From Ectocarpus siliculosus (taxonomy: Eukaryota > Sar > Phaeophyceae > Ectocarpales > Ectocarpaceae), in assembly GCA_000310025.1 (NCBI GenBank), contig FN649741.1:6944714-7008713 (forward strand): DNA of 64,000 bases, in the 5' to 3' direction. The notes beneath the pieces are model-generated. The model was not told where the DNA came from, did not search any database, and was given only the letters and a program-made list of their open reading frames with translations. Position numbers and translations under genes: made by a program. Of the stretch, positions 19,538 to 63,390 are shown piece after piece (position 1 is the stretch's first letter; each line of letters starts with the position of its first letter).

Positions 19538-19975
19538 CTGCCGGAGTTTCCCCCAACAACTACTCGCGTCCGGTTGAGTGCTGGGGATACACCAAGCTGG
19601 ATGCACAGAGAGGCCCCACCTCCACTGCAACCAGAGTCGGCCCCCTCTGATTGAAGAGGTGAAAGACAAGCCCTCCGTGGAATCTCGGAGCCGTGAAAAC
19701 ACCGACCAATAGAGATCCCCGGTCCCCTGCAGACGCTGCGTCGGAGTTAACCACGACAGGTGGCTCTGATACCTGATACCAGCACCGTGGTGAACGCGTG
19801 CTGCTGGTGCTGGTGCCTGCTCTCACCCGCCTTCGGGCCTCGTGGTCTAGGTCCTCCCCCCAAAAAAACAGCACCATCGTCCGTCCCCCTACAGAGAAAT
19901 GGCAATGATGAGAGAGCACAGCACACTTGCTGTGCAGCAGGCAAACGCAAGGAACAGAGAGCGTGGTTGCACACG
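19538..19975. promoter_or_regulatory. Shared divergent promoter region of START gene and TIM44
   Basis: The 438 bp between the two start codons must contain both 5' UTRs and both core promoters, since the genes point away from each other. Both flanking frames stay open upstream of the chosen starts (to 19702 on the minus strand and 19760 on the plus strand), so longer N-termini are possible. The chosen starts are the ones followed directly by a signal peptide and a mitochondrial presequence. No clear TATA element is seen. Confidence 0.6.
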
Positions 19976-36000: not shown

Positions 36001-37444
36001 GACCTTGTCCCTCTACACACGCGCCGGTCTGTCTTGTGACCGAGGACAACGAAGTCTGTCGGTCGCGAAAAATAGACGATCGCAACTAAGGCCTGGAACA
36101 ACGATACCGACGAGAACAACCCCTGCCGCCATCATCGCGTTGACATCTCTCTCCCTGCTCAAACGCCCTATACACAGCAGCAGCTGCGGTAGCAGAAATA
36201 AACCCACAGCCACGCAAGGTAGTATAGTATAGTATAGTATAGTATAGTAGCGATCACCACCACCCCGGAACACCACGGAAAGATGCCTGTAGCTCTCACA
36301 AGCATCGCTTCCCACCTTCGTGAGGTCGCTTATGAGCACCGTGTCTACCTCCTCCTCCTCCTCCTCCTGCTCCTGCTCGCCCACCACCACCCCGCCCCCC
36401 GATGCCCTGGCCATGGCCCTGCAGACCTTATCCCTCTCCTCCTTGACGTCTTTGTCCTCGCCAGGTCCCCTCGAGGCGCGGAGCATTTCGATCAAGTCGC
36501 GGTCCGACCACCCCCCCAGCCACAGCCTCAGGCGGTCCGCGTAGGCCCTTACCCCTGCGGCAGGGCTGTACTCCACCACGAGCACCTTCGGCGATTCGTT
36601 CGATTGGAAGGGTCCACGCAGGTGGGGGGGGGGGGGGGGGGGNNNNNNNNNNNNNNNNNNNNNNNNNNNNNNNNNNNNNNNNNNNNNNNNNNNNNNNNNN
36701 NNNNNNNNNNNNNNNNNNNNNNNNNNNNNNNNNNNNNNNNNNNNNNNNNNTGGGGGGGGGGGGGGGGGGGGGTACTTGCACACCTTAGTTTTTTAGACCA
36801 TTGACCACGCGTCCTCGAGAGGACGGAGCACTGCTGTTCGAAAAGGATCGATCACCGATGGCCAATCGTTCCTTCCTACAACTGTGCCAAAGTGGGGGGC
36901 AGTTGTAGCAAACAATGACCGGGCCACGGCAAAGGGGTGGCCGCAAATTTGACAGATACCTACGCCTTTTGCGGGGTGACTTGAACATGTATCCGAGAGG
37001 AAAACAATCGGTAAGGTGTCCCTTGCCACTCGCTTCTCTCAGTTGCAGCAGTAGCGCGAGAGGGACGTTCCCGACCCTCAAAATCTCAACCTACATGTAC
37101 TACATTTCGTTTCATGCACGGGGCATCCCGCACTTGGTTCACCGCAGGTTCCGGGTGGCCGTGATATCTTCTCTGGTGGGCGGGCGCCGGCCGTATCCTG
37201 GCCTAACCTACAGCAGTAGCGGCTTACGCTGCCAAAACAAAACTGATGGCACTAGAAAGACACACACACGAAAATCCAACACCGGCCGTCCTCTGTGCCC
37301 CATTGGGACGTGTCAAACGCGAGTCAAGCCGGCGAGAAGAACAGTCACGATTGAGGGACGGCACCTGCGGATCTGGGTTGGATCTGACGTGCTCCTACAA
37401 GCTGGTTTTCGCAAGCGCAGTCTAGGGCAAGCAGCGGCGATGCT

Positions 37445-37479
<35 letters not shown>

Positions 37480-40400
37480 GAAGAATCGCAAGCACGTGCT
37501 TCCTAAATAGACAGTCGCGGCCGAGAGTGATACTACAATAAGAGACCAGAGACAAGAACAAACAAAAAAAAATGTTGGAACAAATAACTCACCAAGCCCA
37601 GGTAGGCCAACGCCTCCAAGCACATGTAACAAATCCCTCGTCCCGCCACGTCCCACGCGAGGACACCCCCCTCCCGATCCATACCCATCACCTCTCGCAC
37701 GTAGAACTCAGACGACACCTGCGCGCAAAGCAAGTGCATCGCAGCGTACATGTAGACATCGATTCGGCGAGGTGTGTTTCGATCGCGCCGCATCGCAATC
37801 AGACATGATAAACAAGAATAAGACAGCACTCCTTCTGCGTCGTGAAAAATCACTTCGTGGAAGCAAAAGACGCCAGACATGTCACCTTCCACGAAAAGAG
37901 GGAATCACCCCCAACTGACGTTGGGGGAGATGCAAAAATGTGTATGTTCCTCCCTATCTATTATGGCGCCAGTCTACACACGGTTTTCGGTTTGTAGGTT
38001 TGACGTATCAGCCGGCGTCACACGTGAGGAAGGTGGGGGAATCATAGACGTCACCCCCGCATGCAGAGCTAGCTAAATTACAACGTCTGGCCGAGTCTCT
38101 CCGGCGTCAGCACGCCATGACCGGTAAGTCGTGCGGCATACGAGCTCGACTGCAGAAAGCGCTCGGGAGGGTGAAGCAGCATCAAACACGCTGGCCAGCG
38201 TTCCCACAGACTCTCCAGGCGAAGCACACACGCGATATGGAAACCCTGGAAGCCCCAGGGGAGTGGGGGGTGGTCGTTCTCTAACCGCTTGCCGACATCT
38301 CCGACGTATCTCAGCACACTCGTCACCTTCAAGAGTAATGGAGCCATGTCCCCACCACCAATAAAAAAACTACCAACATGGGGGGGGGGGGTTGAGGGGG
38401 GCGAAGCCGAAAGCCAGGGGGTACAGCAGTAGTACCCTCGAGGATAACCTCAAGAGACGACCAATAGAATGCTGCTAAAGTTGATGGAAGAACTGCGTGG
38501 CGAGCGAGAGAGTGTTTTTACCCGGATTAGACCGTCCCCAAGGAGGTACGGCGGGAAGAGCCGGAAGATGTGCTGCGCCTTCGCCGCGAACTTGACGGTC
38601 CTCTTCAGGGTCGACTGCGGCAGCCCGAAAAAAAAATAAGAAAAAAACGCGGGGGGACGGAGAAAAAACGGTCAACCAATCATGCCACACAAGAAAAAGT
38701 GCGGTCAAAATACAGAACGATATACAGGGGGTTAGCGATCGAGTCATTGCGGAGCGCCGTTTTAAGGGATGAGCCAAGTCGCCTCACAAAGTAGTCTACG
38801 CAGCAAAATTGACTAAGCAAACATATGGGATAAAGTATTGAATCCGTGCTTCGGGGTTAGGGTTAGGGTGAGGGATGCGGTCTGCGTGCCCCCTCTCTAT
38901 TCTCTTTCATGTACAGTAGATACTATTAAAATCCTGCGTGGGCGGTCCCACAATCCTTAACCTCCTCACCAGCACCGCGTAGGCGACCACGAAGCCGAAG
39001 CCGGACAGAAAGTTAACCCCGGCGATCGAGATCTGCGCCGCCGAGGGCCCGTCGAACGCGAACGAGTAGAGGTAGGACAGCGGCAGTGAGGAGAGGCCGT
39101 ACGACAGGAGGAGCCCCCAGGTGCCGAGGAGGGCGTCCCAGCGCATCATGAACACCTGGGAGTTTTTCAGCACCATCCAAACGCGGAAAGGGGAGCGGCG
39201 TGCTCATGTTTCGTACATGCCATAGCGGTTAGACCATTGACGACGCGTCCTGGAGAGGACAGAGGGGGGAGGGGAGGTCGCTATGATGCTTGGCACGTGG
39301 GGCTGACGAACGCCATACTGGGCGATTGTCCGAAGCGGGTCGGGGAGGGGGAGGTCTGGCCCTTTAGAAGAGTGCGTTGGTGCAATTTGAGGGGAAGGCT
39401 CATGGCGACAACGAAAAGCCATTCCTGCGATCCATGATGATCGAAGCTATTCAGTCGAGATAGGCAAGACCTCCGATGAATGATGATATCAAACACACGC
39501 CCAATACTGGAAGCACATACATACGCAGCAGGTAGGTCGTGCCCGGTATGAACACATCACGATCGCCAATCTCTATCCCCACGGGCTTGACACGGAACAA
39601 GTAGCGATACTGGAGAACATACCTTGGAGGCGTCTTTGCCGTAAGCGGCGAAGGTGAGCATCACCAACACGGTCAGCACGAAAAACAGGAGCGCGTCCCA
39701 CAGGTAGGTCGACGCCCAGTACGCCAAAGGGCTCGCCCCCGAAACGAGCTGCACCTGCAGTCACATGTCACATTGTTGTTGTTGTTGTGATTGCTACGGC
39801 AATTTCTTGTTTTCCTGTGTTAGTGTTGGGCTGACGATAACAAGTACGCGGACAACGAAGTCCCCACGTTCGAGCAACCACAAGCAATAGCAGTTCGTGT
39901 GGGTCTACTATTGAAGAAAATCAGGCAGGTAACCAGTCCAAATCAGGTACACTTCCATCGAAGTGCCCACATTCAACAAACCAGCACAAGAACAGTTGAG
40001 AATTGGCTGCCTCAGAAGAAAAGCAGGCAGGTAACCAGTCCAAATCAGGTACACTTCCATCTAAATCCCCACATTCAACAAACCACAAACAACATGGGCA
40101 TTGGCTAGGCGGAGACAGGAACACATACATACCCGCTTGCTCTTGCAGGCCCTCTCCCGGACGAGGAAGGTGACGAAGGCAGCGGGGGCGTAGCACAGCG
40201 GGATCGTCACCAGGAGGCTCACCAAAAGCGAGAGCATCGTCTGTACTTCCAGCGACTGCAACGGGCCGGGACAACAAAAAAAGGTAGAGGGAGAGAGAGA
40301 GCGGCGTCAGGATACCGGGTCAAGGCAGATGGTGGCAGTTGGTGAGAACCTTCTGCACCTCTGCGGTGATTGGACGGAACGAGGAAGCGCAAACAAATTG

Positions 40401-43400
40401 AGAACATGACATAAATGTTTTCATCAGGACATGAAATTGAATCACGTTCAGGTCGCCATGTTGAAGACGGAGGTTGATGTCGATAAGAATGTCCGCATTC
40501 AACAGCTTTGTCTGTACCTCCATCGAGCGATACATACAGAGTACCTCTGTCAAAATATGGTGAGACACAGACAGACACAGAGGTATAATTGATTTCGAGT
40601 TTCCTATCCTGCAGCTGTGCACAACACCGCCATCGGCCCAAAACTGGTGTACAGCAGGACAAGGCGCATCGAGACCGCGACGAAAACGCCCATCTTGCCG
40701 TCGTCACTGGCATGTATGTACTTTTTAGCGTTGAGTGCCGCGTTCTCTGTTTTTCTTTCTGAAACAAAACAAACTCATCTACATAGGCACATGAAGAGTG
40801 TCCCTTCCTTGACAACTCGACGTGAGCGTTTTCTCGATCGACGTGAACGAATCCAACATTTTTTCTGCCAGAGAAGACGTCCACGGCACACACCGCACAC
40901 CAGACTCACTCCTGTCCCAGTGCGTCAAACTCACACCGAAAGGCCCTGTAGACTGGCGCCCAGGCAACATGGGACCAAAAGAAAGCAAGCGAAAACAATT
41001 CATTCAGAGGAAAATCTTGCTTATCTCGTATTTACCTCGGTCGCGGTAAGCGGAAGTGGGTGACTCCTGACAGTGTACGAGGCTTGTCCCCCTTCCAGGC
41101 CTCTGTTCGTGGCACAGGCCTGGAATGTCCTGGCGGTGAGCTCTCCGACCCAAGCGGGGAGGGCGTGAGGGCTGCCAGACAGACCGCAATGTGAATGTTG
41201 GGGAGGGGGGGGGGGGGATGGGGATCTCGCGGGAAACAAGCAGACTCCACCCGCATATATGGAACTTACTTCTAAACATAAAATGTGGCACGCGGTTCTC
41301 TTCTGCGAGTGGTGAACCGGTTCGCACGTCGTGACGGGTGACTTCCGGGCTGTTCCGTCATGTGGTGGCGTTTGACGTTAGGTCCGCGGTGTAAGGTGGT
41401 ATGTTCGAGGGGTCTACGTTGTCGTGATACCGGCTGGAGTTCCACTAATACACGCGCGTGGCAACTCGAGCAACCCACAAAAGCGCCTAAGATTTACCGT
41501 TTAAATAGCTGGAACTTCGAGTCCATCCCGTGTCACTCGTGTGCCAAACAGGTCAGGAATTCCCCACTCGCCGTCCTCCACACCACCCAGAAAGGGCCCA
41601 CGTTATCGTCAAAATGGCGGAATTCCACATCCATCCCGTATCACTCGAAGAACCACCAAGGGCCTCTACTTTCTTTGTCGTGTATCGGAACGGGTTGGAA
41701 TTGCTCATCCCCGGTCTCTCGAGTCAAATCACCAAAACGGGGAGCGAGCCATCACGTGATTCAACACGAGCCAACCGGTGATTCGAAACACGACGGAAGA
41801 AATGAATCAGCCTGAAGTAACATTCAACACGACTGAAATCGCTCAAAACAACCAAAACCATTTAGATCACGCCGCATCCCTCTTGCCAGCCCAAAAAAGA
41901 ATCTAGCCAAGCGTCTTCTTGCTGATGTTCATTTTCTTTTTCTTTTTATTTCCTTTTGTTTAAGAAAGAAGACCCGTTCGACCTACATCTACGGTCGAAT
42001 TGGGATGGGTTGGAAGTCACAACAGTAAAAAGGGGAAACTTTGTCAGATCAATCAACTCACGCGGTGCTGTTGAACATAACCGTGGTGAGGATGCGGTTA
42101 GGCTGCAGCACCCCCTGATCGTAGCGGACGGTCCCTGGGGGAAGAGCGGTGAGCACGTCATCCACGCTCAGCTTCACCTCTCCTAGCTCTAGGTCCTGCG
42201 TCTGGTTGTCGACCCTCACAGAGAGGACGACTCCGTCCAGCTTGAGCTGTGTATTGTCGGTATTTTGGTTTGTTGAGGGCGGATTGAACCCGCGGTTTCA
42301 GGAAAGAGGAAGACGGAGGGTGTGGGGGAAAGGGGGAAAATATAAATAAAACGACAGGCGAGAATGAACATTTTGTAGGAAGTCGGCGGAAACTCCGAAG
42401 ATCGTTCCCCGCCTTCTTTCCGCGTACTACAGTACTCACACCGGCGACAGTGTCTCCACCTCCATACGTGGGCAAAAAAGTGGGGGAGCGGCGAAAAAAA
42501 CAGCGGGAGGGGGGGGCTACTTGCCACCACTGTGTAGAGGCAAAGCCTCATAAATTCGCTACGGACCCCCAGCATCGACGAACCTTTGTTCCTGATAGAC
42601 GTTATTTTGGCACGGCCATGACCGAAACGCATCTGCGTCAAACTCGTGAGTGTTTCTCGTGCAGCTATATCACGGTAGTAGGTACGAATTGGACCCGGGT
42701 TGCTGGCTCGCGGCCACCATGCGTTTAGCGCTCTACGTACGCATCGAGCTACAACAACAAATAAAAGGACACCGCGAGCCGTGCATATATACAACAGAAC
42801 AGAACAGAGGGCACCGTGTGCCATGAACACAGCACTCTTTGCTCCACCCCGCTAACGCCGAAAACAATCTCCCAAACACAACAACCTGAGAAAGAGGCCA
42901 AGAAAAAAAGCCGCGTGTTCCTGTTCGACCAAAAACAGCAAAATGGCTATCTCTTCTCGTCCCCTCCCACCATGTTCTCGGAACCGGCGTTATCCTGGCA
43001 GGGGGGCCCCGTGAATCGAACCGGAAAAACGGCCCTCACCTGCGAGGACTGAGGCAGGTACTCCGCCTCCGTGAAGCGAACCGTTGGGTCCTCGTCCACC
43101 AGGACAAGCCACTCGTTGGTCCAGTTCCTGCCCCTGGCCCACGCCAGCGCGTCCTCGAGAGCTTTGCTGGTGTTAGTGTTGCCGGCGCCTGGTAGGAGGG
43201 CCTCCACGGCCTGCGGGAAAGTCCAATTTGCGGGGGGGGACAGACGCGGCGCAATTAAATGCATCGCCAAGTGCTGAATGGTCTGTTCAGTTAACTATTA
43301 TACCTGGTGTTGGGACAGATAGCTTCAAACCAGATGGGACCGCAACAACAGCAGACGTGTCGGACAGTTTTTCACAGCGGCAAGTTTTGCCGTTTCAACC

Positions 43401-46400
43401 GCCGTAGATGCATCGGAGTTGCCCCTCACATCTTGGTCTCCTTGGTCGAGTTGATCGAGCCTCCCAGACCCCTCAACAATAAGTCTTGCGAGATCCTTCT
43501 CGTCCACGCCCGTCGCATCCACCAGCCCCTGTAGTCGATTGACGACGCCATGCCGTGTCAAAAACGTCGCGTAAGGCAGAACAAGAGAGTGTCGAGATCG
43601 GCAATTTCGCCTTGAGCTATGCATACTTCACCACAAGAGTTGACTCGGTACGGGGCAACAAAAAGGTCTAAGAATGTGTAACGCCCCAATGGGTTTGCGC
43701 GTGGCATTTATTCAGAATAATGGCAAGATTGTGTTTCCGACAGGAGCAGCAGCAACAACCGTTTCTAACAGAACCTTCTTGCACCCCCCGTTCTCGCCTA
43801 CACGACATCTCCGCCGAAACGACCATCTCCGAAAAAAGCGAAACATGTGCCCAAATAGGAGATTCCTAGAAAAATAACATCGCAGCTAAAAAACGCCCGT
43901 CACTTCTCGGCTCTCCATGTTCGAGCTCTCGCGCAAGATGCGTGTCGCACCTCTCGCGATCAAACAATGCATGTCACACCTCTCGCGATCAACACACACG
44001 CCACAGCAGGGTTGGTTGGACAAACACGCTCGAACCTGGAGATCGAACTCCCCGCCCTCCGCCGGAATGACGTCATCGCCGACGATCTCCAACGCCGACG
44101 CCAGCATCTCCGGGTTCTCCCGAAAGCTGTCCCAGTCCACCGTCAAGTTCACCGGGATGCGGTCTCCGAAAACGAAGGCGCCGTAGCGAGGGGGGCGGCC
44201 GCCGCCGCCGCCGCCGCCGTCCAACGGCGTTGTTGCTGCTGCTTCATCAGAGGTGTCGGTTTCAACGGACACGTCGACGTGATCCCCATCATTCGAGGAG
44301 ATCGTGATCATCCCGCCGGTATTGTAGGTTTCGAGCATGAAGCGCGAGAGGCCGGAGCTGGTAGGGGCGGTGAGACCCGCCCCTGTTAAAAAGGAAGCGA
44401 GAATGGGGTAAAGAGAGTAGGTCGTTCCGAAGGTTCGAAGACGTGAGAGTGGCAAGGGTAGAGGTGGGAGATTCGGGTACCCACCAAACAAAGAAGGCAG
44501 TGTGACTGGTCGCCATGCAGCTGTTTCATCGTCTGCCATGCCGACATACACAGCGAAAAAATAAACTACATAGGCGGCGTGCCTTTCTCTCGACGTTGGA
44601 GCAGCGCTGGCAAACTACGGTATACATGTGACAGAGGACAAAGGGTTCGGCTGCTCGGAAACCTAAACCCCGAAACGAACCCCCCCTTCCGACGAGAAAA
44701 CATGCGTTCTGTAGTGAATGTTTTCCGGCCGACACCACCGAGTTCTCAGGGTGATGACGTGGATAGGCTAAACTAAGTCAAGCATCTTCCAGCACGTGTC
44801 CCTCAACCCTCGTTGTAAACTCTACAGTACACCCTCCCTCTCCTCCCTCTGGGCAATAGCTAGGATGGGCCGTCCTCTCCGCGGTGTGCCGAGCACTTTC
44901 TGAAAGCGAGGGAACAGTTTTCCTCAAGGAGATCGATCTACAGACGTGCGCCTTGTACCTCCGTCTACTCGCGTCCAGGCCTCCGTCTCCTCGGCGACGT
45001 TGCCAAACGTCTTTCCTTCGGGAAGACCTTCGCCATCGCCTTCGGTGTACAGCACCTGCGTTCGGCGAACCACGTACCGAAATTTAGAAAAGGCAGCGGA
45101 GACGCGATTTCGCACACAAGAACCAGAGAGGGCAGGGCATGTTCTCACACTGGGTCCATCCACTCCGAACCATCGTGACGTGTGCGGATGTGTGCGCGTG
45201 GTATATGCTAGCGAGTCGCCTTCTTTTTGGTGCTTCTGTCTTTCGTGAAATTCGTCTGTTATGTTTACCTGCTGCACAGAAAGTGAGAGCTGTTGTGACG
45301 TGTGGTGTGCAGGTGCGGCACAAGTTGCACGATTCATAAATCTCAGAATTTTAATGGACGCCAAAGGCTTCGTGATATTTAGCACCAGACGATCCAAATC
45401 CACTCACTCCCATGGCCACACCGCACGATAAGGGAACAAAACCTTCTCCTCCTGCTATCTTCTCTGCACTCCACCCACCCCGCCCCCCGCTTCTTATCGC
45501 CAAATGACTGCGCAGCTTGCGTCAAGCGGGAAACCCATGTTGTTACTACTCTACACCGCGAGCAAAAACAAAGCCCAGAGAGAGACATGCATACACACAT
45601 ACATGGGCATGGCATGGCCTTCTGGGCGACGCCTTTTCTTGGATCTATGCCCATGCCCCCTTCCGGTGGCCTTGATGTCTACCCGCAGACACATCATGTC
45701 TTCTCAGTGGTCAGCCGGTTTAGCGTGGTCGATGTATCAAATAATTGCACACACAGACGTGCCGGGGGAGCCCGTTGACTAGAAAGCGTGTTCGCGTGGT
45801 CTATATTGCTTGCAAAGATTCGCGTGGTCTCATTGATCAGCTGGACATATATGTAGCGATGCTACTCAAAGGAACACTCAATTCACACCCACACGTGCCA
45901 CACAACATCCCTGGGAGCCTTCCTTCGCCCGACACCCATTTCGCCGCGGACCCCCCACCCCCCCTCCTCATATCCCGTCACCCCCTTAAAAAAAATATTC
46001 AGCCCACCTGGGTAGGACTCCCAAACATCCCAGCGGACATGGCGAGCGGCGGCCCAGCCAGCTTGACGTCGATGGTGAGCAGAACCAGGACGAGGGCAAC
46101 CATCACGGCGGGCAGGACGATCTGATACAGACCCCCTCGCCAGTCCCGCTGGGCCACCACCCTCCTCTTCCACAGCAGCCAGCGCAGCTGCTCCCTCAGG
46201 CCTGCCCCCGCGGCGACCCCCTTACCCCTGCCCTCGCTCCCGGTCGCTGCGCCCCCCTCCCTCCTACCAGCAGACGAGCTGGTCGCCTCGGCTGCCTGTG
46301 CCGCCCCACCGCCGCGCGTCGCGCCCGAGGGCGATTCTGCGTCGCCCCCGGGGCCGTCGTCGTCCTCTTGGGCCTCCGCCAGGATGGAGGCGAGCTCCTC

Positions 46401-49190
46401 CTCGTCGCGGGAGAAGCCTGCGTAGCCAGGGGCGCCTCCTGCCTTGCTCGGTCGATCGTCGTGGTGGTCATTGCCCCCGTCGCCGCTGTGTTTCCCAGCC
46501 GGCGGCATCTGCTCGGCCTCCACCGCCGCCGTCGCCGGTGCCATGCTCCGCATCTCGACCTCGCACACCTGTCCCGGTGCCGCGCTCGCCCACCACCCTT
46601 TGTTGCCACCGCCGGCAGCGTTCGAGTCTCGCCCGAAGCCTCGCCGTTGCCGAAGGCTCCGCCCTCTGCCGCGGCTGCTGGCGGGTACTCCGCCGCCTGC
46701 CGTCCCGGCAACCCCTTCCTCGCGAGTGAAACCGTCGCCGGAGGCGTGTTGTTGTCGCCCACCGTTGCCCTGGGCGGGCTGCTGAGCGTCGGTCATCTTG
46801 CCCTCTCTCTCAAGGCTGAGAAAGACCTGATCGGGAGGTGAGACGGGTAGTCGTGAAGACAGGGGCTTTGCTTAGCAAGAACGGATGGATCGGACACGAT
46901 AAAAAGAATACTTCAACACATCCCCTTCGACCGCAGCATTATCTCGAACGGGTAGTCGTTCTGTGGTTATTTGTCAACTATAAAAAAGACACGCAAAATA
47001 TCTGTGGTTGTATGTAGCGAAAAAAAAATAAAAAAAAACGAATAGCACAACATTTTACGATGCAATCAGAGAGGTACTTACAACTGACCGCTGTGAAGAC
47101 CAAAGATCACGAGCGGAAACCGCTCTCTGGTCACTCCCCCAGGCACGGAGCCCCAGAGAGGCGCACCCACCTCTTCCAGGCTGGTGATCGAAACGCCGTA
47201 ACCCCCGACTCCCATCGCTTCCCTCCCCGCCTCCAGGGCTCGGAACAGACCGGGAAACTTCTGAGATTTTTCTCGGGGCAACCTGAAGGAAATCTCGCCG
47301 CCCGCGGCAGAGAGCATCTCGGCGTCTTCGACATGCGAGAGGACCAGACTAGTCAGGCTGTTGGGCTCGAACGATTCTCCGGCCTTGACGAGGGTCAGCT
47401 TGTAGCCCAGACCGAACCTGATGTGGAAAATTCATGACAACGTGCGAAAGCGGCAGAGGTTGTTGGCTTGCCCCCCACCGGTTATTTTTTTCTAGGTGCG
47501 GGAATGTAGAGTTGCCAAACCTAGAGATGAAGCGTTGTATGGCGTATGGCGCGTGGAGTGTCGGTGTAAGCAGAATACCACTTGAGCAGCAAATTTTCTT
47601 GTGACATTTTCAGAGCAAGAGCATCGCCGTCGTAGTTACCGTCCTCCGGGTTTACAAGCCGCTTTGAAAATACTTTACCCTTGCATGTACCCACCACAAC
47701 AGCGGGAAAAAAAATCAATACCGCCTCGACGCCACACATCAGCCTTGGGAGTCAAGACCAAGCACGGAATACACAAACAAACAAAAATAACAGTAACAAA
47801 TTTGAACAAGATGCGTTATTAGCATGTCGTTCTTTCTCACCGACTCTTGAGAAACAGAGGGCTCCCAGCGCATCTAAGCTTCCCCTTTCGCAGCATCGCC
47901 ACCCTGTCCCCGAGGTGATCGGCCTCCTCCATGAAGTGCGTCGAGAGCAAGGTGCACCTACCCGCCCGCCCTCTCCGCAGCAGGTCCCACGTGAAGCGCC
48001 TGGAGTATGGGTCCATCCCTGAGGAGCAGCGTGTACAACCACAGCAGTACCCACGATGAGTCGGCAGCTGGCAGTTGTTGTCGAATGTTGTGGACGTCGA
48101 AACTCGTGTATTAGAGAGTAGGGAACGAGGGCGTTCAGAGGCCTGGTGATCCCTCATGTCCATTTCCAGCCAAAGTGCAATTGCGAGGCATGGCACAGAC
48201 ACATTATGCTCGTATGCCAGTCCAATCTGCCCTTGGCCACCACCCATTCGTGCGGCACGGGAGCAGCATGGAACATACCCCCGCCATCGGCAACCGAGCA
48301 CAGTCTCGCTACTCTGAAAAACAAAGGCGCGGTCCCTCCCTCACACAACCTGGGTATAACCCCACACCAGCTTATACACCAGGAACGCGTTGGCCTGTTT
48401 TTATCCCGCTACATATCGTTCCGCTCTGGCACTGGCGTGCTTTCATGTTTCCAGCCGGATGGCGCGGTACATGCCTACTAAAGCAGACACCCACACAAAA
48501 TGTTGACCATCCCGCAGAAAATTACTGACGCAATTTCATTGGTCCAGCCGGTTAACATGGTCGATGCTAACAACAACAAAAAAAAAAAACACGCGCGCGC
48601 GCACACAAGTCGTTGTTTAGTAGCCGCACACACGTCATTGGCCCATTACCACGGTCGATACCAACACACACACGTGCACACATACATGCAGGAGAGCCAA
48701 GAGCCTTCCCATCTCGTACCAGAGGTAGGCTCGTCCAAGATGCAGAGAGCGGGGGAGCCCGTCAGGGCCAGCGCGACGCTGAGCTTCCGCTTCTGCCCCC
48801 CCGAAAGGTTCATGGACGGGGTGTGCTCCTTCTCCAGCAGGCCCACCTCACGGAGCTTCTTCGTTACCAGGGGCCTGGACGATCAACCATACCATCCATA
48901 AAAAAATAATTTTGTTGTTTTTTCTTTTTGTACAGACTACAGCAGCAGCAGCAGCAGCAGCAACCTTTAGACTCCTTCGCGAAAAGCATGGCTCCACAAT
49001 GTTTGCAAGGGTCAGCAAGTTCCACCGCTATACACCCATTTCGTCGCGCGCATGAAAGAGTTCTTCACGTCGCTGGGTGATGGCGGTGTTCAGACGCGAT
49101 AAAATCCCCTTGCGTGAGCATGATGTTGTGGATCGTCGATTCAGCCCCTCGAGAACTAAACAACAACAACGACGACGATGACGACAACAA

Positions 49191-55200: not shown

Positions 55201-58200
55201 GAAATTAACCGTACGTCTGTCTTGGAAGAGCCCTTTCGCAAGCGACGTTCAAAACGACGCAGCGCCGCCCGCAGCAACGCGGGAAGTACAAAAAGTAGCG
55301 GCCGGACAAGAAAACGTGTGAACAAACACCACCCTCCTCCCTGGCATCTCACCGTCCCGCCAGGAAAGGTCCGACCTACCTCGGATCCAACCCGATCGCG
55401 ATCATGTCGACGACGGTGTTGGTGTTGGGAACCGTTGTGAAGTTCACGCGGATGGTGTAGTCGACCCTCCCGTCGGCCGCCTCGTCGAGCGCGATGACCG
55501 CCCACGTCCTCTCCTCGAGGTGGTCCAAGGCGTAGGCGACGGCATCGTCCTGTGTGACGAAAAAAATCCCCCCACGTTGTCGGTCGCCGGAGCGTTCGAT
55601 CCGGTGTGTGTTTCGTTATTAAACACAAGACGACTTCGAGCACGTGTGTTAGGCATACAGCAGAAAGGTGAATGGGCGCCACGTGCACCTCTGCTTCGGG
55701 TATGCCTCTGTACGATATTGCCCCGTTGACGAATTGGAGGCTATGTAATAATATACAGCTCGTTCACACAACGTCACGGCGCGGTACGCTTACGTCTGAT
55801 TCGTAGACGCGCAAGCCTGCTGCTCTGTACTACATTGCCCAACTACCCCCGTTGAACGATCAGCTATGAAGCTCGTTGACGGAGCGGCATGCTGCTGCGA
55901 CTCTCTTACCTCTGATTCGTGGACGCGATGAGTCAAACGGTCGAACCCGGTGGTCGTGTTTGACAGCCAAGACACCAGTTCGCTGTGCAAACGCACGGAA
56001 CGACAAAAGGGAAGCACGCGCACATCCCATCCGTTGGCGCGCGACAAAAAATCGGCCAGCTGTATACGTCCGTCCGTTGAACGCGCGACAAGTTGCCCAG
56101 TTGTACATACAGCAAAAGACAAAACGAACGCCTTGCGCAGGCAGGGAAGCAGTCCACATTGTGTCCCCAACATCATACCGGAGGTACGGTAGCACCATCC
56201 CCGTATCAAAAACGCCGACACGACTCACCCCACAGCCGGCTCTCGCTCAGGAGCGAAGTGCAGAGTCCCTTGGGTGATCAAGTTACCAAACACCCACCCG
56301 GACTCCATGCTGTTGACCACCGAGGCGTAGGCGTTGTCCGCTAGATCCCGGACTACGGCCGTCCCAAGCCCGACAAACTGATCGAGGTTCGGCACCGCAC
56401 AAGGACCGTCCAACAGGCCGGTCATCTCCTTGAAGATGTCTCTCACGTCCCCAAACGCCAGCCCGTCGGCTTCGCCGCTACCGTCCAAGCCGCCCATGCC
56501 TTCGTCGGCATCGACGGTAGAATTGGGGGCTGCCCCACCGCCGTCTGTTGCGCTCGACTCCCCTACAGCTGGCAGGCTGGCATTCGCTGGGTTCTGATAC
56601 GAAGACGGCGCACGGTGCACAACGCGCGTCGTATCGCGGTTCGATACGAACAAGGGGAGGGGGGGAAACAAATCTTGGACTGCGGGCGTGTTTCAGCTCT
56701 GATGGACCGTGCAATCTCAATAGGCAACACAGGGAAGCGCTTCTAGAAATGCGCAGGCGGGCATTTAATCAATTGCCGTTGAAAAGGCTGATATATATAT
56801 ATATATAGTGTAACCAACGCTATTAGGCCGACTCCTAGGAGGTCTTGCTCGGGCACCGATGCATTGCTAGAGGCTCCCTCACACCCTGCGGAGCGGAAAT
56901 TATCGGAAAAAGAATGAATGCACCACGCGGAGGAGGAGGAGGTAAACCCCCAAAACAACCCAGCTGTCCCAAAGTACCCCTTGATTACCTGGCTGTAGAG
57001 GTGGGCCAATGGAAGCAGCCTGCCGAAGCCTCCAGGAAGGTCTAGCCGGACAGAAGAATACACCTTTGGATCGTAGGGGCAAGACGGCGCGTCAGCATGC
57101 ACGCGCGGCTTTCGTTGGACGGCCGGACAGGTAAATCTACCCAGCGGTAAGCGTCTGCACAGCGAGCATGGGTGATGCGAGACCTTGAAGTACTCATGTT
57201 GGGGGGCTCTTTCGCAGACCCCCGCGGTGGTGGTACTTGGACCCTTGGACCAAGATACCATCTGGGCTGTCAGCGAGGAGGTGTGGGTACCATGACGACC
57301 TGTTTCCAACAGGCGAACTAATGCCTCAGCTGACTGGGCATTCTTCTAGTTGATGCTGGCATGCTCATGAGCGGACAGGTGCAACCTGTGTTGGCAGAAA
57401 TGACACGTTCGCACTTGTGGGGCTAGGCGATGGATCTCCTTGCAACCCGTAATACACTTTCTTTGACATCAACAACCGATCCTGATATTTTCCCTACAAC
57501 GTTATTGAGTGTCCGCGTGACGAGCCTACGCCGTCCGGAAAATGGGGTGGAAAGCACCTTAGGCGAGAGCAACGGCTCTGCCGTGTGAAATGTGCCGCGA
57601 CGGGTAGGTCTGTGTACAGCTTGTCTACAGTACTGCTGTAGTGAGGAAAATCTTCATGAAAACCACATTGTCGTCGTTGTTGCGTTATTACAGCAGTAGT
57701 AGGTCAAACGGACCGCCCCCCTAGAATGGGACTCAAGACTTAAATGCCCAACGATTGAAGCACGTGTGAAATGCCCTCGTGTGTTCGAGCCTGCCGTCGA
57801 GTATGTTCGAGCCACCAGTGCACTACAGCAGTGGTTGATTAACGAACCGCGCGTGACACGCCGTGTGGGGGTGCCTTCGTGGCCACAGCCACCATCGAAA
57901 ACTTTTACAGCAGCATCAACCACCCAAATCAGAGAATTATCTCCCACCATTGTTTTTCGTCAGTACGGCAGAAGTAAAAGGTTTGGTGAAGTCTGCAGGA
58001 CCAACAACATCCTTCTGTCGCACACAGCAGCCGTAAAAGCGTAACGTTGAGCGACGTACATGCTGGATGGATCCTGAAGTAATCACCGCTCAGATACACC
58101 CGGAACGAGACTTGCTGACACGCACCCCCACCCACCTTCTCTGGGAAAACTAGCACATCCGATAAATAGTAGCCGTAGACCAGAACACACAGGAGAAGCA

Positions 58201-58832
58201 CAGGACTGCAAAGCTCGCAGAAGGTTGTGCTCTTCGTTCTCCGACGCTCCTTTCGACACGATTTGCCAAGCAAGGCACCCAAGGCACCCGACAGCAGGTG
58301 TATCAAAAATAACGGGCGGACAAATTATTCAGCGGGCGGGTTTTAGGAATAGTCTATGGTACTTCCTTGATTTGTACGTCCACGCGGCAGACGATCAACA
58401 GATGGCCACGGTTTCGGACTTGACTCCTTGCTCTCTCCCTGTGCTCAGTCGAGGGAAGGGTTTGAGGGGCGAACAAGCTGCACGCGGTGATGCAGAGATA
58501 CGTGTATAGCAGGTGGAGCTCAAACTGCCGCGGAATGAAACCAAACGCCGCATGTACAACCACACTTACTTCATGCTGCACACTGTCAGGTGGCAGTAGA
58601 ATTTTCCACGGGCGTCTACAGTACAACAATGGCGACGACGAAAAGAAAGGTTAACACGTTCGGGCAGGTCGATTGCTATAGGCGCATGGCCCCACCGCAC
58701 AGCAATGAGACCTCTGGCGTGCTGCATGCACCACAGCTGCAGCGGCCGCAAAAAGCTCACAATGGCATTCCTTCTCAAGAGCGCTGTGATCTCCGCCCCT
58801 GCGTTCGGCGCTCTGTCCTCTTCAATCTCCAT
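30100..58832 (-). CDS. ABCA: Full-length ABC transporter, subfamily A (36 exons)
   Basis: ABCA proteins use ATP to move lipids across or out of membranes. Exons in coding order (minus strand): 58832-58761, 58249-58136, 56593-56229, 55982-55910, 55549-55380, 54953-54722, 54311-54252, 53728-53504, 53085-52991, 52241-52046, 51021-50639, 50154-50057, 49545-49430, 48874-48720, 48018-47841, 47417-47171, 46826-46008, 45055-44959, 44382-44036, 43210-43040, 42240-42062, 41171-41036, 40693-40628, 40255-40133, 39754-39623, 39155-38970, 38614-38522, 37718-37593, about 36620-36316 (5' edge in the gap), 35788-35689, 34956-34854, 34335-34217, 32791-32587, 32100-31920, 30878-30633, 30480-30100. Phases agree at all complete junctions except one apparent extra base at 50722-50724. 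Order is TM1, large extracellular loop, TMD1 ([16 protein letters not shown]), NBD1 ([56 protein letters not shown]), regulatory domain, long linker, TMD2, NBD2 ([58 protein letters not shown]) and an acidic tail. About 2,300 residues. Both ATP sites look intact. Confidence 0.93.
31514..31843 (-). mobile_element. tRNA-derived SINE with poly(A) tail and target-site duplication
   Basis: Read on the minus strand, the element starts with a tRNA-like head (about 31843-31755) containing an A box (TGGTCTACTTGG) and a B box (GGTTCGAACCC). A unique body of about 215 bp follows and ends in 23 consecutive A (T-run 31514-31536 on the plus strand). The flanks are near-identical 15-mers: GTCACCCCATGCGAT (31500-31514) and GTGACCCCATACGAT (31844-31858), with two mismatches. 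These are the hallmarks of an RNA-polymerase-III-transcribed SINE inserted by a LINE machinery. The head does not fold into a good cloverleaf, so it is not a functional tRNA gene. It sits in the ABCA intron between the exons at 31920-32100 and 30633-30878. Confidence 0.8.
32892..32990 (+). repeat. Dispersed G-run repeat, copy 1
   Basis: A run of 15 G followed by TGTACTCAT, then CATGCCGTAGTCGTTTGACC, ATTGACCTCGCATCC and CCGGGACGGAGCA. It matches copies at 36752, 39198, 51062 and 60400 (inverted). It lies in an ABCA intron. Confidence 0.75.
33371..33573. repeat. Minisatellite, three copies of a 66-71 bp unit
   Basis: Units start at 33371, 33437 and 33508. Each contains GCTTGTTTTACAACGTCGTT, AGCGACGAAAACCCAA and GATGGCAAACACCG, and they differ mainly in the length of a G-run at the junction. 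Intronic in the ABCA gene. Confidence 0.9.
36221..36250. repeat. Pentanucleotide microsatellite (AGTAT)n
   Basis: About six units of AGTAT/GTATA in an ABCA intron. Confidence 0.9.
36643..36750. other. Assembly gap (108 N) between G homopolymers
   Basis: The gap is bordered by G-runs of about 19 and 21. It removes the 5' edge and acceptor of the ABCA exon that ends at 36316. Confidence 0.97.
36752..36895 (+). repeat. Dispersed G-run repeat, copy 2
   Basis: Follows the G-run after the gap. It contains TTAGACCATTGACCACGCG, the palindrome CGTCCTCGAGAGGACG, GGAGCA, and then ATCACCGATGGCCAA, which is shared with copy 4. Confidence 0.75.
37446..37480. repeat. (CAG)n microsatellite
   Basis: About eleven CAG triplets, intronic in the ABCA gene, between the exons at 37593-37718 and 36316. 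Confidence 0.9.
38856..38880 (+). repeat. Short interstitial telomere-like repeat
   Basis: GGGGTTAGGGTTAGGGTGAGGG contains two exact TTAGGG units and degenerate neighbours. It is intronic, and far too short to be a telomere. Confidence 0.7.
39198..39275 (+). repeat. Dispersed repeat, copy 3 (no long G-run)
   Basis: Contains TGCTCATG, GTACATGCCATAGCGGTTAG, ACCATTGACGACGCGTCCT and GGAGAGGAC. The long G-run is absent and the palindrome is damaged. It lies in an ABCA intron. Confidence 0.7.
39855..40105. repeat. About 102-bp tandem repeat, two full copies plus a partial one
   Basis: GGCAGGTAACCAGTCCAAAT and AGGTACACTTCCATC occur at about 39924 and 40026, each followed by CCCACATTCAACAAACCA. A diverged partial copy precedes them. 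Located in the ABCA intron between the exons at 40133-40255 and 39623-39754. Confidence 0.85.
49181..49240. repeat. (AAC)n microsatellite
   Basis: About 18 AAC/ACA triplets in an ABCA intron; the poly-Asn frame across it is not coding. Confidence 0.95.
51062..51200 (+). repeat. Dispersed G-run repeat, copy 4
   Basis: A run of about 14 G followed by CGTACTCAAG, ATACATGCCTCAGAGGTTAG, ACCGTTGACCACG, the intact palindrome CGTCCTCGAGAGGACG and ATCACCGATGGCCAA. It lies in an ABCA intron. Confidence 0.75.
55707..55927. repeat. Imperfect tandem duplication carrying the 3' end of ABCA exon 4
   Basis: Segments 55707-55811 and 55824-55927 align over about 104 bp. The second contains the last 18 coding bases of exon 4 and its GTAAGAG donor (55910). 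The first, 3' of the exon on the minus strand, keeps the matching exon-end sequence (CTACGAATCAGAC) and a working-looking GTAAGCG donor, but no acceptor is visible. Confidence 0.7.
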
Positions 58833-59190
58833 GACGATGCCCGGCTGCTGCTGCTTTCATCGGTGTGCTGCTGACCCGTGGCGTAAATAAACCCGCACCC
58901 AGCGAAGAGACAGAGCGTCGGGAGCAGCAGAGCAGCAGAGCTATACAGCAGGTTGTTTGAAAAACGGTGCTGCTGGCTGCTGCTGGCTCAACAAGCAATT
59001 CGAGGGTGACGGACGGGTCAATGCGGCGTAACTACGGTATCCCCGGTCCCCCAGCCACCATAACGCACTTTCAAGGACCGGTCCTCAGATTCAGATTTTC
59101 AGCCAGCAGCCAGCCCCCTGGCCCACTTCGCGCAATTCCATCCTTGGTTGCTCCTATTTGCGCTGCAGAGGGCAACACAGCACCAGCAAC
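58833..59190. promoter_or_regulatory. Shared divergent promoter of ABCA transporter and scramblase
   Basis: Only 358 bp separate the two start codons. An in-frame stop lies just upstream of the ABCA ATG, which supports that start. The spacer holds CAG/CTG-rich stretches (58921-58989) and a perfect 10-bp palindrome GGACCGGTCC (59075-59084). No clear TATA element is seen. Both core promoters and 5' UTRs must fit here, unless an upstream untranslated exon exists. Confidence 0.65.
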
Positions 59191-62100
59191 ATGGAAAATG
59201 CCTCTGCGCTCGCGGCCAAGCTGGGAGACATGAAGCACATCAGAAAGGTGAGCCCATCGACTTGCTCTTGCATTCGGACGACTGCTGTGAAGCACAGCGA
59301 CGACACAGCCTCGTTTTTTCTGCCCCTGTGCGCACAACTCTTTTTCCCTTGTTTCGTAATTGAACCTGCCGCACAGCACCACCCCCGCCCGACGCAACGA
59401 TACTGCTTTCGCCACACACGCACCTCTCCTTCAGCCCTTACTAGGCGTGGGGGACGTGGGTGTGGTATTCGTGCAAGCCGGACGATTTTTTCCTTGCTAT
59501 CCAGTTGCGGCAGCAAAAGTGCCATTGTTGTTTTTCCGGGGACCCCCGTTTTCCGTCAACTACCAACTTGGTTTTAGAGAGAAATCGAGAAGTAAAATTA
59601 CGTTTGTCCTAAACGGTCGTTTTAGTTGTGTGTGTGGGACGTGTGTTGCGGAGAGAGTCGGTCGGAATGTCGCACAGCGTGTGCTGGCTTGCTCGTTGGT
59701 TGTCGGTGTCGTGCTATTAACGAGAACGCGCCAGGCAGGAAGCAGTGCATGCGTGCCTTGATCCGATGAAACCTGTGCTATTGCAGAACGGAGTATTGTA
59801 CGCACCAGACACGCACTCGCAACGGGCGTTGTTGTTGAAGACTACAGCAGTACACTCAACAAAGCTGCAGAGATAACCGGCGACAGCCGTGCAGCACCAG
59901 CCGTGGTTCAAGGTTTTACAACTCTTGCCTCTCGCATAAATTCTGCCTCGCGGCAGAATCCGCACCCTCCAACGTCTCGACCCAAGCCCAAGCTCGTGAT
60001 CCCCGTGAAGCTTATCACGACGGGAATACATACCCCGACTAAATGCTCTCGTACGTTGTACGCGTTTCCTTATGTCATGGGGCATGGGCCTGTGCAGCAT
60101 TAGATGTAAACATCGCAGTATGATGAAGGCGGGACCTGCTCGTCCGGCGGGTTTCCGCACGCTGCAATCTTGTTGGCTGCGGCGGCCTGCGCTTTCTCTC
60201 TCTCCCTCACTTCCATAGGCGGTAATTTTTCTCACACAAGTGCCTTGTGTACTGCTGTATATTGGTATTTTGGATGTCGCTGCCGCGAAGATCCACCCCC
60301 GGCATGCCCATTCCACCCATGGCGTTTATCTGGTGTGGCAAGAGCAAGCGCTAAGGATGAACCTCCTTTTGAAATGTACGCCTGGGCCTCAGCGAAAACC
60401 CGGCATTTCGCTCCGTCCCGGCACTTTAGGGATGCGAAGTCATTGGTCTAACGACTACGGCATGCGGCATGAGTACACACCCACCCACCCCCGCATGTTT
60501 CGAGCAGCTGTGCGTAGGTTACGGTTCACCGCACACAGGCGCGGGGGGGGGGGGGGGGGCTTGCGGCACGTGTGCATGGGCGGTCAGCCACTGTCCCGTT
60601 CCTATTCTATTCGCACTCGCCATGCCGTGTACATCGCCAGTACACCCATCGTATGGAGTCTGCGCTTTGATCCGGCAGTTTAGTCTCGCGTCCGCTTGTT
60701 CTTCGCTTCTCCTCTCCTAGTACGGTACGCTTTGCTTGACGTTCTTTGCCCATGAAATTAATTAACCGCATCCAATACCTGCGCGTGTACATACCTATCC
60801 ACCAGGGCCTCGAGCTGGCTAAGGTCGCCCAGCAGTACGCCCAGCAACAAGGCGTCCCTCTCCCGAGTCTATCCGGCAAAGAGCAGACGATGGACGACAC
60901 GATGCCCGGAGCTTTCGGCAGGACGCAAAGCCGCGGAGGCTTGGACGGCTTGCTGGAGCGCGCGTCTTCCGTGCTAGGCGCCGGGAACGGTGGCGGTGGC
61001 GGCGGCGGCAGCGGCGGCTTCGGCAACCAGGGTGGCTTCGGCAACCAGGGCGGCTTCGGCCAGGCAGCGGCGGCGGCTGCGACGGCGGCGGGTTTCGGCG
61101 GGATGTCGCACCTCGCCGGCAGGAGGGGCTCGGGCCAGCAGCAGCAGCACCAGCAGCAGCACCAGCAGCAGAACCGGTTCGGCCGAAGCAACTCTTTCGC
61201 CGGGACTTCGAGCAACAGCTTCGCGCAGCAGCCGGAGTTCCAGCAGCAGCAGCAGGGCGGGTTTCCCGGGCAGCAGCAGCAGCAGGGGTTTGGCGCGCCG
61301 GGGACGCCAATGGACTTCGGGCCGAGCCCCGGCGGTTTCGGAACGCCCGGAACTTACGGACCGCCGACTCCGCTAGCAACTCCCGGCTTCAACGGCCAGC
61401 AGTACCCCCCGGCGTACGGCGTCATGGACCCGCCGCAGTTCGGCTTCAGCGGCGCCATGACGACCCAGGGGCAGCAGGGCTTCGGAGGGCAAGCCTACGG
61501 GAGCGGGCAGCAGGGGTGGGGTCAACAGCCACAGCAGCAATTCGGCAACAACGGAGGCTTCGCGAATCAGATGTCGACGCAGCAGTCCGGGTTCGGCTCC
61601 TCGGGGTTCGGGCAGAACGGGCAACGGGGGGCCGGCGGAGGGGAATACTGGAACTCGGCGGGGGTCCTGGCCGGGGCCGGCCTGGCGGGGGCCGGCCTGG
61701 GGGCCGGCCTCGCCTCGACGTACAACAGCGCGTTCGGGAACGGGGGAGGTGGTGGCTATGCGGGCATCAGACAAGGCTACGGGAACCCCGGGGGCGCCTA
61801 CGGCGGGCCGGCGCTACCCCCGCCGCCCGGGAAGGGGAAGAAGAAGGGTGGCGGGGGCAAGAACAAGGGGGGGGGCGCCGTTACCGATCAGCCGCCGCCG
61901 GGGCCCGCCCCGGTGGAGGGGTGGCTTGCCATGCCGGTCGGGTACGAGCTTCCCGAGGGCATCCCCAAGGGTTTGGAGGTGGGCTGGGGCAGGTTTTTGT
62001 TTTTTGGGGGTCGTGGGTTGGGTTGAGTCGGGGGCAGCGAGCGGGAGCGGCTTGGCGGACTTGCGTTGTGTGTCTTCTGTGGTTTTTGTCGATGTCGGGT

Positions 62101-63390
62101 CCTGCGTTTGGTCGTGGAGTCGCTCTCTTTGTTGGTTGGTGTCTCGAGTCGGTGGTGCAGCCATGTGTGGTTGTTCGGGTGTCTGCCTGCCTACAGAAAA
62201 ACCCCACGACATTCACACGTCCCACCTACACACAGTCACCGCGCCCTCCCCCCCTCCCCCCCTACATGTTCTTTCAGATTCTGGCGATGGTGGACGGGTT
62301 GATGGTGCACCAGGAGGTGGAGACGTTGGAAGCTATCGCCAACGCAGTGGGGATCGGATACGAGGGCAACAACCAGTGAGCACCGTAGCCGCCTGCTCGT
62401 GTCGGCCGTCAAAACCGTAGCCACCTATTTCCGGCGTGTGTCTCTATTTAGCTACATGCAAGTGTGCTCGATCGGGATTGCGGCGCTACGTTTGGGTGTT
62501 TCAGCTGGAAGAACTACTGGTTGCCGAAATGCGTGTCAAATGTGTGGGTAGGCTAGTTAGTGCCTGCTATTGATGACGTCATCTCCTTGTCCCAGTGGGA
62601 TCCGTCGTCGGTGGTTGTTTCGCCGAGCGTCCGCGGCCTCCTGAAGCGTTGTTTTTCTGACTTGACGATGATGCACAGGTACAAGATCAGCAATCGGGCG
62701 GGAGTGCACGTGTACCAAGCAGTGGAGGACACGGGCTTCTGCTGGCGCTGCTGCTGCACGCAGCTCCGGCCCGTACACATGAAGGTGTACGACCAGACAG
62801 GGAGTCAGGTGCGAGGGATGAGAAAACGACACATGATTGGCGAGGAGTACTTGGGAAGTATTTTATTTGTGTGGAGGGACTGAGGAATGAGCAAACGAAC
62901 GCTCTTGGGGAGGATAAGCTATTATAGTGCGGAGGGGGCAGCAAGCAGCACTTCATGCACCGCCGGCGTACCGCGGGGTTGCTTGCGCTTACTGCAGTGG
63001 TTGCTTCAGCTCAGCTCAGTGGTCAGTTTCATGCCAGTTGTTGCGCTTGCATACATTAATAACACACACTCCTTCCTCACGATCTGTTCTGTTATTCCCT
63101 ACCATAATCTGTACCACGACCGAACAGGTCCTGGCCTTCCAGCGACACTTCCGGCTCTTCCCGTGCGCCTGGTTCGAACCGTGCCGCGAAAACGTGACGG
63201 TATTCCACGGGCCCAAGGAGGACGGGAAGGTTTTCGGGAGGGTCACGCAGTCGTGCTGGGGGGGCTGCTGCACGCCCAAGCTCAACTTCTTCACCCGAAA
63301 AGGGGCCGGGGAGTTGTTCGTCAGGGGCCCGGGCTTCTTGGGGGATTGTTGGGGGGGGGGTTTGGATGTGCTCACGGACACCAAAAAGAG
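59191..63390 (+). CDS. Phospholipid scramblase with large Gly/Gln-rich N-terminal domain (3' end missing)
   Basis: Scramblases move phospholipids between bilayer leaflets without ATP, usually on Ca2+ rise. Exons: 59191-59247, 60806-61978, 62278-62375, 62679-62808, 63128-63390, with GT-AG sites and consistent phases. Exon 1 encodes MENASALAAKLGDMKHIRK. Exon 2 (391 codons) holds a Gly/Phe/Asn/Gln-rich region with repeats such as GGFGNQGGFGNQGGFGQ and poly-Gln runs, then WLAMPVGYELPEGIPKGLE. The scramblase core follows: ILAMVDGLMVHQEVETLEAI, YKISNRAGVHVYQAVEDTGF, a Cys cluster FCWRCCCTQLRP, a second one (FPCAWFEPC) and CWGGCC. The typical C-terminal part (the FPxDLD-type calcium-binding segment and final membrane helix) is not seen. 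A GTTAAG donor at 63391 suggests that it lies in exons beyond the low-quality end. If the frame reads through instead, it stops at 63419-63421. The gene is divergent from the ABCA gene. Confidence 0.88.
60400..60488 (-). repeat. Dispersed repeat, copy 5 (inverted)
   Basis: The reverse complement reads GTGTACTCATGCCGCATGCC, GTAGTCGTTAGACC, AATGACTTCGCATCCC and GCCGGGACGGAGCG, closest to copy 1. It lies in scramblase intron 1; a separate G-run is at 60542-60560. Confidence 0.7.

What the first reader, a model, noticed from the sequence alone, without database searches (positions are those of the whole stretch)
58833..59190. ABCA lipid transporter and phospholipid scramblase share a 358-bp divergent promoter
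Two proteins that act on the same substrate class in opposite ways (ATP-driven transport against passive bidirectional scrambling) start 358 bp apart in opposite directions. The spacer contains a 10-bp palindrome (GGACCGGTCC, 59075-59084) and CAG/CTG-rich elements. Seen: the two starts and the distance. Known: the functions of both families. Inferred: co-regulation of a bilayer-asymmetry module.
Basis: partly seen in the sequence, partly recalled or inferred. Interest (0 to 1): 0.8.

Follow-up and report, generated by a model that had tools for sequence, protein, structure and literature searches.

The report
Ordinary head-to-head algal gene pair
Two brown-alga genes, an ABCA-type transporter and a protein of the so-called phospholipid scramblase family, really do start 358 bases apart in opposite directions, but that arrangement and spacing are typical of this alga's genome and are not evidence of a shared lipid-control module.

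Summary
The ABCA start codon (minus strand) begins at 58832, the scramblase-family start codon (plus strand) at 59191, and exactly 358 bp lie between. The GGACCGGTCC palindrome is chance level: about a third of 358-bp stretches of this window, or of shuffles of the spacer, hold a 10-bp palindrome. CAG/CTG richness is real (30 against a window mean of 12), exceeds every comparator measured, and stays unexplained.

A polyketide synthase of the same assembly matches the solved Ectocarpus siliculosus enzyme at 288 of 288 residues compared, so the genome is Ectocarpus. Published work there puts 61.7% of the genes flanking TSS-adjacent intergenic regions in divergent pairs, with a median spacer of 409 bp. 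Pairs closer than about 600 bp share one nucleosome-depleted region, yet their transcript levels are uncorrelated (Pearson 0.054). Six H2A/H2B pairs in this assembly have spacers of 350-389 bp.

A co-regulated bilayer-asymmetry module has no positive support, and the in vivo scrambling role of the PLSCR family is disputed. Co-expression of this pair and its conservation in other brown algae could not be tested.

The parts
58833..59190 (.). 358-bp spacer between the two start codons; holds the 5' leaders and the presumed divergent promoter
   Evidence: one match in the genome, itself
59075..59084 (.). 10-bp palindrome GGACCGGTCC, chance level
58761..58832 (-). ABCA transporter exon 1 ([24 protein letters not shown])
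   Evidence: phase 0, donor GTGAGC, joins exon 2
58136..58249 (-). ABCA exon 2, first hydrophobic segment
46900..58135 (-). rest of the first ABCA half: extracellular part, TMD1, NBD1 (exons 3-9 placed; NBD1 pieces read by eye)
32553..46871 (-). probable second ABCA half (TMD2 start, judged by eye, within ORF 45999-46871; NBD2 piece at 32553-32735)
   Evidence: that it is one gene is inferred
59191..59247 (+). scramblase-family gene exon 1 (MENASALAAKLGDMKHIRK)
60806..61978 (+). scramblase-family exon 2, Gln/Gly-rich N-terminal region
62278..63390 (+). scramblase-family exons 3-5 (62278-62375, 62679-62808, 63128-63390) with the PF03803 domain; the profile's last 67 positions are unmatched and a 2004-N run follows just after the window

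Best explanation
An ordinary closely spaced divergent gene pair of Ectocarpus. Shown: two genes on opposite strands, start codons 358 bp apart, in a genome whose published norm is divergent neighbours about 400 bp apart. Inferred: the two transcription starts sit at the edges of one nucleosome-depleted region, each with its own core promoter and leader, and the two genes are regulated independently. Transcription on each side may help to keep the region open, which would explain why such pairs are common without a functional link between the products.
For: Species: 288 of 288 compared PKS III residues identical to PDB 4b0n, an E. siliculosus enzyme (PMC6274091, passages). [quoted passage not shown] In this assembly 12 of the 25 listed histone matches form six close head-to-head neighbours; all six are H2A/H2B by N-terminal peptide (labels recalled) with ATG-to-ATG spacers of 350-389 bp. 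One scramblase match over the cut-off, ABCA-type NBD matches on four other contigs and weakly on a fifth, no second copy of the spacer.
Against: The spacer's CAG+CTG count (30) is higher than at every comparator: 17 other putative starts with a full 358 bp upstream, taken without selection (median 14, highest 22), two H3 genes (14, 14), one putative window gene (21), and six H2A/H2B spacers (5.0-15.7 per 358 bp). 'Ordinary' does not explain that. No expression, chromatin or TSS data for this pair were available. The H2A/H2B pairs show that some divergent pairs in this genome are functionally linked. The genome searches can miss matches, so 'seen once' is not 'occurs once'.
Confidence: 0.87

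Rival explanations
1. A co-regulated lipid-asymmetry module: one bidirectional promoter drives an ATP-driven lipid transporter and a scramblase together.
For: Both genes are real. The spacer is CAG/CTG-rich beyond its comparators. A review abstract calls lipid translocation the main function of PLSCR1 (PMC12003403, listing), and overexpressed PLSCR1 gives weak scrambling in TMEM16F-knockout cells.
Against: Divergent pairs in Ectocarpus are transcriptionally uncorrelated on average. The pairing was seen once. PLSCR scrambling in vivo is 'skeptically argued', and PLSCR1-knockout A549-ACE2 cells expose phosphatidylserine normally. The palindrome is chance level.
Confidence: 0.06
2. The scramblase-family transcript starts elsewhere (ATG at 60752 or a distant upstream exon), so the true spacing is about 1.9 kb or undefined and there is no shared promoter.
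For: Exon 1 is only 19 codons and has no cDNA or homologue behind it here; an alternative in-frame ATG precedes exon 2.
Against: Codon score +6.3 against -5.5 bits, phase 0 junction with GT donor and AG acceptor.
Confidence: 0.07

Closest known systems
[quoted passage not shown]
   Same: opposite strands, head to head, spacer under 600 bp and near the 409-bp median, same genus
   Different: nothing shown to differ; TSSs, chromatin and expression of this pair not seen
ABCA subfamily of ABC transporters (ABCA3, ABCA1, ABCA4, ABCA7 among the PDB matches)
   Same: NBD1 aligns over residues 2-291 of 291 with ABCA3 (E 2e-142); a sub-threshold ABC2_membrane_3 match in TMD1; a second NBD match further 3' on the same strand
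   Different: substrate untested; one apparent frame break in the NBD1 exon of this assembly
Phospholipid scramblase / Tubby-like superfamily (PF03803)
   Same: PF03803 at 87 bits against a cut-off of 25.4
   Different: long Gln/Gly-rich N-terminal region; the last 67 profile positions not matched, with an assembly gap following; no solved relative at E up to 1 by sequence
H2A/H2B divergent histone pairs in the same assembly
   Same: same geometry: spacers 350-389 bp in six of six measured
   Different: recur six times and are functionally linked; low CAG/CTG (5.0-15.7 per 358 bp)

Membership tests
Ectocarpus close divergent gene pair | adjacent genes on opposite strands, 5' ends facing | tested here: met
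Ectocarpus close divergent gene pair | spacer under 600 bp | tested here: met
   358 bp between ATGs, so less between TSSs unless a leader holds an intron
Ectocarpus close divergent gene pair | shared nucleosome-depleted region with double histone-mark peaks | not testable with these tools
   no chromatin data held
Co-regulated bidirectional promoter | correlated expression of the two genes | not testable with these tools
   no expression data held; the published average for divergent pairs is near zero
Co-regulated bidirectional promoter | pair conserved in related species | not testable with these tools
   the collections offered hold prokaryotes, viruses, plasmids and this one algal genome
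Co-regulated bidirectional promoter | pairing recurs among paralogues in the genome (as H2A/H2B does) | tested here: inconclusive
   one PF03803 match over the cut-off; four weak protein matches (C18, C462, C86, C26; E 0.02-0.23) not followed. ABCA-type NBD matches on C33, C20, C109, C457 and weakly C25. A single-copy partner cannot recur, and the neighbours of those ABCA loci were not read
ABCA transporter | ABC ATPase domain with Walker A (GHNGAGKS) and signature (LSGGQ) | tested here: met
   (GHNGAGKST read across an intron; NLSGGQKRK)
ABCA transporter | ABC-2-type membrane domain | tested here: inconclusive
   ABC2_membrane_3 E 1.7e-5, 24.6 bits, below the cut-off of 31.6, on a hand-made exon join with two phase gaps
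ABCA transporter | two TMD-NBD halves in one chain | tested here: inconclusive
   second NBD match at 32553-32735 on the same strand; continuity of the gene not shown
Phospholipid scramblase (PLSCR) | PF03803 domain over the curated cut-off | tested here: met
   87 bits, profile 5-154 of 221
Phospholipid scramblase (PLSCR) | C-terminal calcium-binding segment and hydrophobic helix | not testable with these tools
   N run at L001 715-2718, just after the window; the stretch beyond it was read but not analysed
Phospholipid scramblase (PLSCR) | lipid scrambling activity | not testable with these tools
   biochemical

The most novel reading that the evidence does not exclude
The pair is a conserved, co-regulated membrane-lipid unit of brown algae, and the CAG/CTG-dense 358-bp spacer is a real regulatory element read in both directions, or a pair of CAG-rich leaders that tunes translation of both mRNAs.
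Probability: 0.06. Interest if true: 0.45.

Novelty: new member of a known kind. Interest (0 to 1): 0.1.

Why it matters
It shows how easily a pleasing functional story arises in a genome where 61.7% of the genes flanking TSS-adjacent intergenic regions are in divergent pairs (PMC7784034, passages). In Ectocarpus, head-to-head order at about 400 bp is the background and cannot by itself suggest co-regulation. If the pair were nonetheless co-expressed and conserved, it would be a lead to lipid-asymmetry control in brown algae.

Tried and rejected
Palindrome as a binding site: rejected, chance level.

CAG/CTG as a general leader feature that would explain the spacer: not supported when counted without selection. 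I fetched 20 of the 65 Ras-family matches (20 of the 23 that begin at profile position 9 or lower), 10 of 38 proteasome matches (the ten beginning at position 5 or lower), six H2A/H2B pairs and two H3 genes. By eye I first kept four starts (L012, L015, L017, L032), two H3 starts (L041, L042) and one window gene (ATG 19976). CAG+CTG in 358 bp upstream was 22, 14, 22, 16, 14, 14 and 21; sense-strand CAG in the last 100 bp was 9, 1, 8, 6, 1, 0 and 5, against 8 for the scramblase and 5 for ABCA. That choice was subjective: several dropped loci do have an in-frame ATG, and the gene at 19976 was picked after I had seen it in the list of CAG/CTG peaks and had no family search. Recounted without choosing: 12 of the 30 Ras and proteasome loci have no in-frame ATG. 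Of the 18 that have one, 3 (nearest ATG) or 4 (furthest ATG) hold 5 or more sense CAG in the last 100 bp, against 4.3% of 2556 window positions; of the 17 with a full 358 bp, the median CAG+CTG is 14 and the highest 22. Some of these ATGs are surely not true starts. Maximum CAG+CTG per 1301-bp Ras locus was slightly higher than in 49 tiles of the window (median 20.5 against 17; Mann-Whitney p 0.02). So CAG-rich leaders occur in some genes and not in most, and this spacer remains the richest measured.

Conservation in other brown algae: not tested, no such genome is offered. Searches for the pair or for scramblase/ABCA in brown algae (listings only) listed no paper on it; they covered the open-licence library only and 12 listed papers each. 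UQ_con: none of the 29 matches began before profile position 11, so it was not used. Assembly version: the Ectocarpus v5 assembly is given as 200.2 Mb (PMC12477816, passages), which differs from the 189.5 Mb here, and (listing) did not settle it. Primer sources to identify the species did not help; the PKS III comparison did. NCBIfam added nothing: no family shown reached its cut-off. PMC13076208 (passages) has nothing on divergent gene pairs in the passages shown.

Full report
What was claimed. An ABCA lipid transporter and a phospholipid scramblase start 358 bp apart in opposite directions, and the spacer has a 10-bp palindrome and CAG/CTG-rich elements.

Observation. The minus-strand ATG lies at 58832-58830 and the plus-strand ATG at 59191-59193. 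The interval 58833-59190 between them is exactly 358 bp and the palindrome sits at 59075-59084. Each ATG is the first one after an in-frame stop. ABCA exon 1 ends in phase 0 at a GT donor and continues into exon 2, which carries the first hydrophobic segment, although exon 1's own codon score is only +0.7 bits. The scramblase-family exon 1 codes 19 residues and joins in phase 0 to a 1173-bp exon; a rival ATG at 60752 scores far worse as coding sequence. The families are right: PF03803 at 87 bits, PF00005 at 98.6 bits, and NBD1 matches ABCA3 with E 2e-142. The ABC2_membrane_3 match is below its curated cut-off. A second ABCA-like NBD piece lies at 32553-32735 on the same strand, so the gene is probably a full-size ABCA of at least 26 kb; that joining is inferred.

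Chance. A 10-bp palindrome occurs in 397 of 1254 overlapping 358-bp windows of this sequence and in 361 of 1000 dinucleotide shuffles of the spacer, so it carries no information. CAG+CTG is 30 against a window mean of 12.3 (sd 4.5); the shuffles average 20.0 and none of 1000 reaches 30. The two richer non-overlapping stretches of the window (6391-6748 and 60951-61308) lie in glutamine-rich reading frames. A DNA search of the genome returned the spacer itself and no second copy (that search skips simple repeats and very common words).

Which organism. The window is at C16:6944714-7008713 of an assembly of 189,456,909 bases in 492 contigs. [quoted passage not shown] exons) is identical over the 288 residues compared to PDB 4b0n, which a review names as an Ectocarpus siliculosus enzyme (PMC6274091, passages). 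The genome is therefore Ectocarpus; strain and assembly version were not identified.

What is normal there. [quoted passage not shown] Divergent spacers have a median of 409 bp against 2293 bp for tandem pairs. Below about 600 bp the two starts share a nucleosome-depleted region, yet transcript abundances are uncorrelated (Pearson 0.042 overall, 0.054 below 600 bp); the authors conclude that the two genes are independently regulated (PMC7784034, passages). As I understand the passages, those distances are between transcription units, while 358 bp is between start codons, so this pair's promoter would be shorter still. In this assembly, 12 of 25 listed histone matches form six close head-to-head neighbours, all H2A/H2B by N-terminal peptide (labels recalled), with spacers of 350, 356, 364, 368, 376 and 389 bp. 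These were picked because they are adjacent and opposed, so they show that such spacing is usual here, not a base rate.

Is there a module? One match passes the scramblase-family cut-off. A protein search finds the same gene plus four weak matches (C18, C462, C86, C26; E 0.02-0.23) that I did not follow. ABCA-type NBD matches lie on four other contigs and weakly on a fifth; I did not read their neighbours. The scrambling role of PLSCRs in vivo is described as 'skeptically argued', with normal phosphatidylserine exposure in Plscr1-/- mice and TMEM16F and Xkr8 named as genuine factors, though in vitro activity is reported (PMC4725246, passages). PLSCR1-knockout A549-ACE2 cells show no defect, though overexpression in a TMEM16F-knockout background gives weak activity (PMC10371867, passages). 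Against this, the abstract of a 2025 review calls lipid translocation the main function of PLSCR1 (PMC12003403, listing only). So 'opposite actions on one substrate class' rests on family names. The C-terminal part of this protein, where the calcium site would be expected (recalled from the family), was not found; a 2004-base N run follows just after the window.

CAG/CTG. Sense-strand CAG is frequent in the last 100 bp before the ATG in both genes (scramblase 8, ABCA 5) and at L012, L017, L032 and a putative gene at 19976 (9, 8, 6, 5), but not at L015 or two H3 genes (1, 1, 0). The 19976 gene was chosen after seeing its CAG/CTG peak. An unselected recount over 30 Ras-family and proteasome loci gives 3 or 4 of 18 loci with an in-frame ATG at 5 or more, against 4.3% of window positions. 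So CAG-rich leaders exist in some genes and are not a general rule. The spacer's 30 exceeds every comparator: 17 unselected starts (highest 22), two H3 genes (14, 14), the gene at 19976 (21) and six H2A/H2B spacers (up to 15.7 per 358 bp). Two leaders lie in one spacer, which may add to the count, but I have no full explanation.

Verdict. True observation, ordinary arrangement. Shared open chromatin is likely, co-regulation is unsupported, and conservation and expression are untested.

Noticed in passing
window 50722-50724 (minus strand, ABCA NBD1 exon): The frame that reads ...VVIKRLRKE and the frame that reads [12 protein letters not shown]...GHNGA are offset by one base near this point with no evident intron between: assembly error or disrupted allele.
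   Followed up: partly
L001 715-2718 (just after window end): Run of 2004 N with long poly-G and poly-C stretches just before it; it probably hides the C-terminus of the scramblase-family gene.
   Followed up: no
58833-59190; also L012, L017, L032 and window 19618-19975: CAG on the sense strand is unusually frequent just upstream of some start codons in this genome, but not of most unselected ones. The ABCA/scramblase spacer is the richest measured.
   Followed up: partly
window 60806-61978: Scramblase-family exon 2 codes a Gln/Gly-rich, low-complexity region of about 390 residues ahead of the PF03803 domain.
   Followed up: no
G000 C27:155150-156054, C27:197044-197956, C27:583662-584562, C464:525578-526470, C241:268057-268943, C150:80745-81670: Six H2A/H2B head-to-head pairs with ATG-to-ATG spacers of 350-389 bp.
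   Followed up: yes
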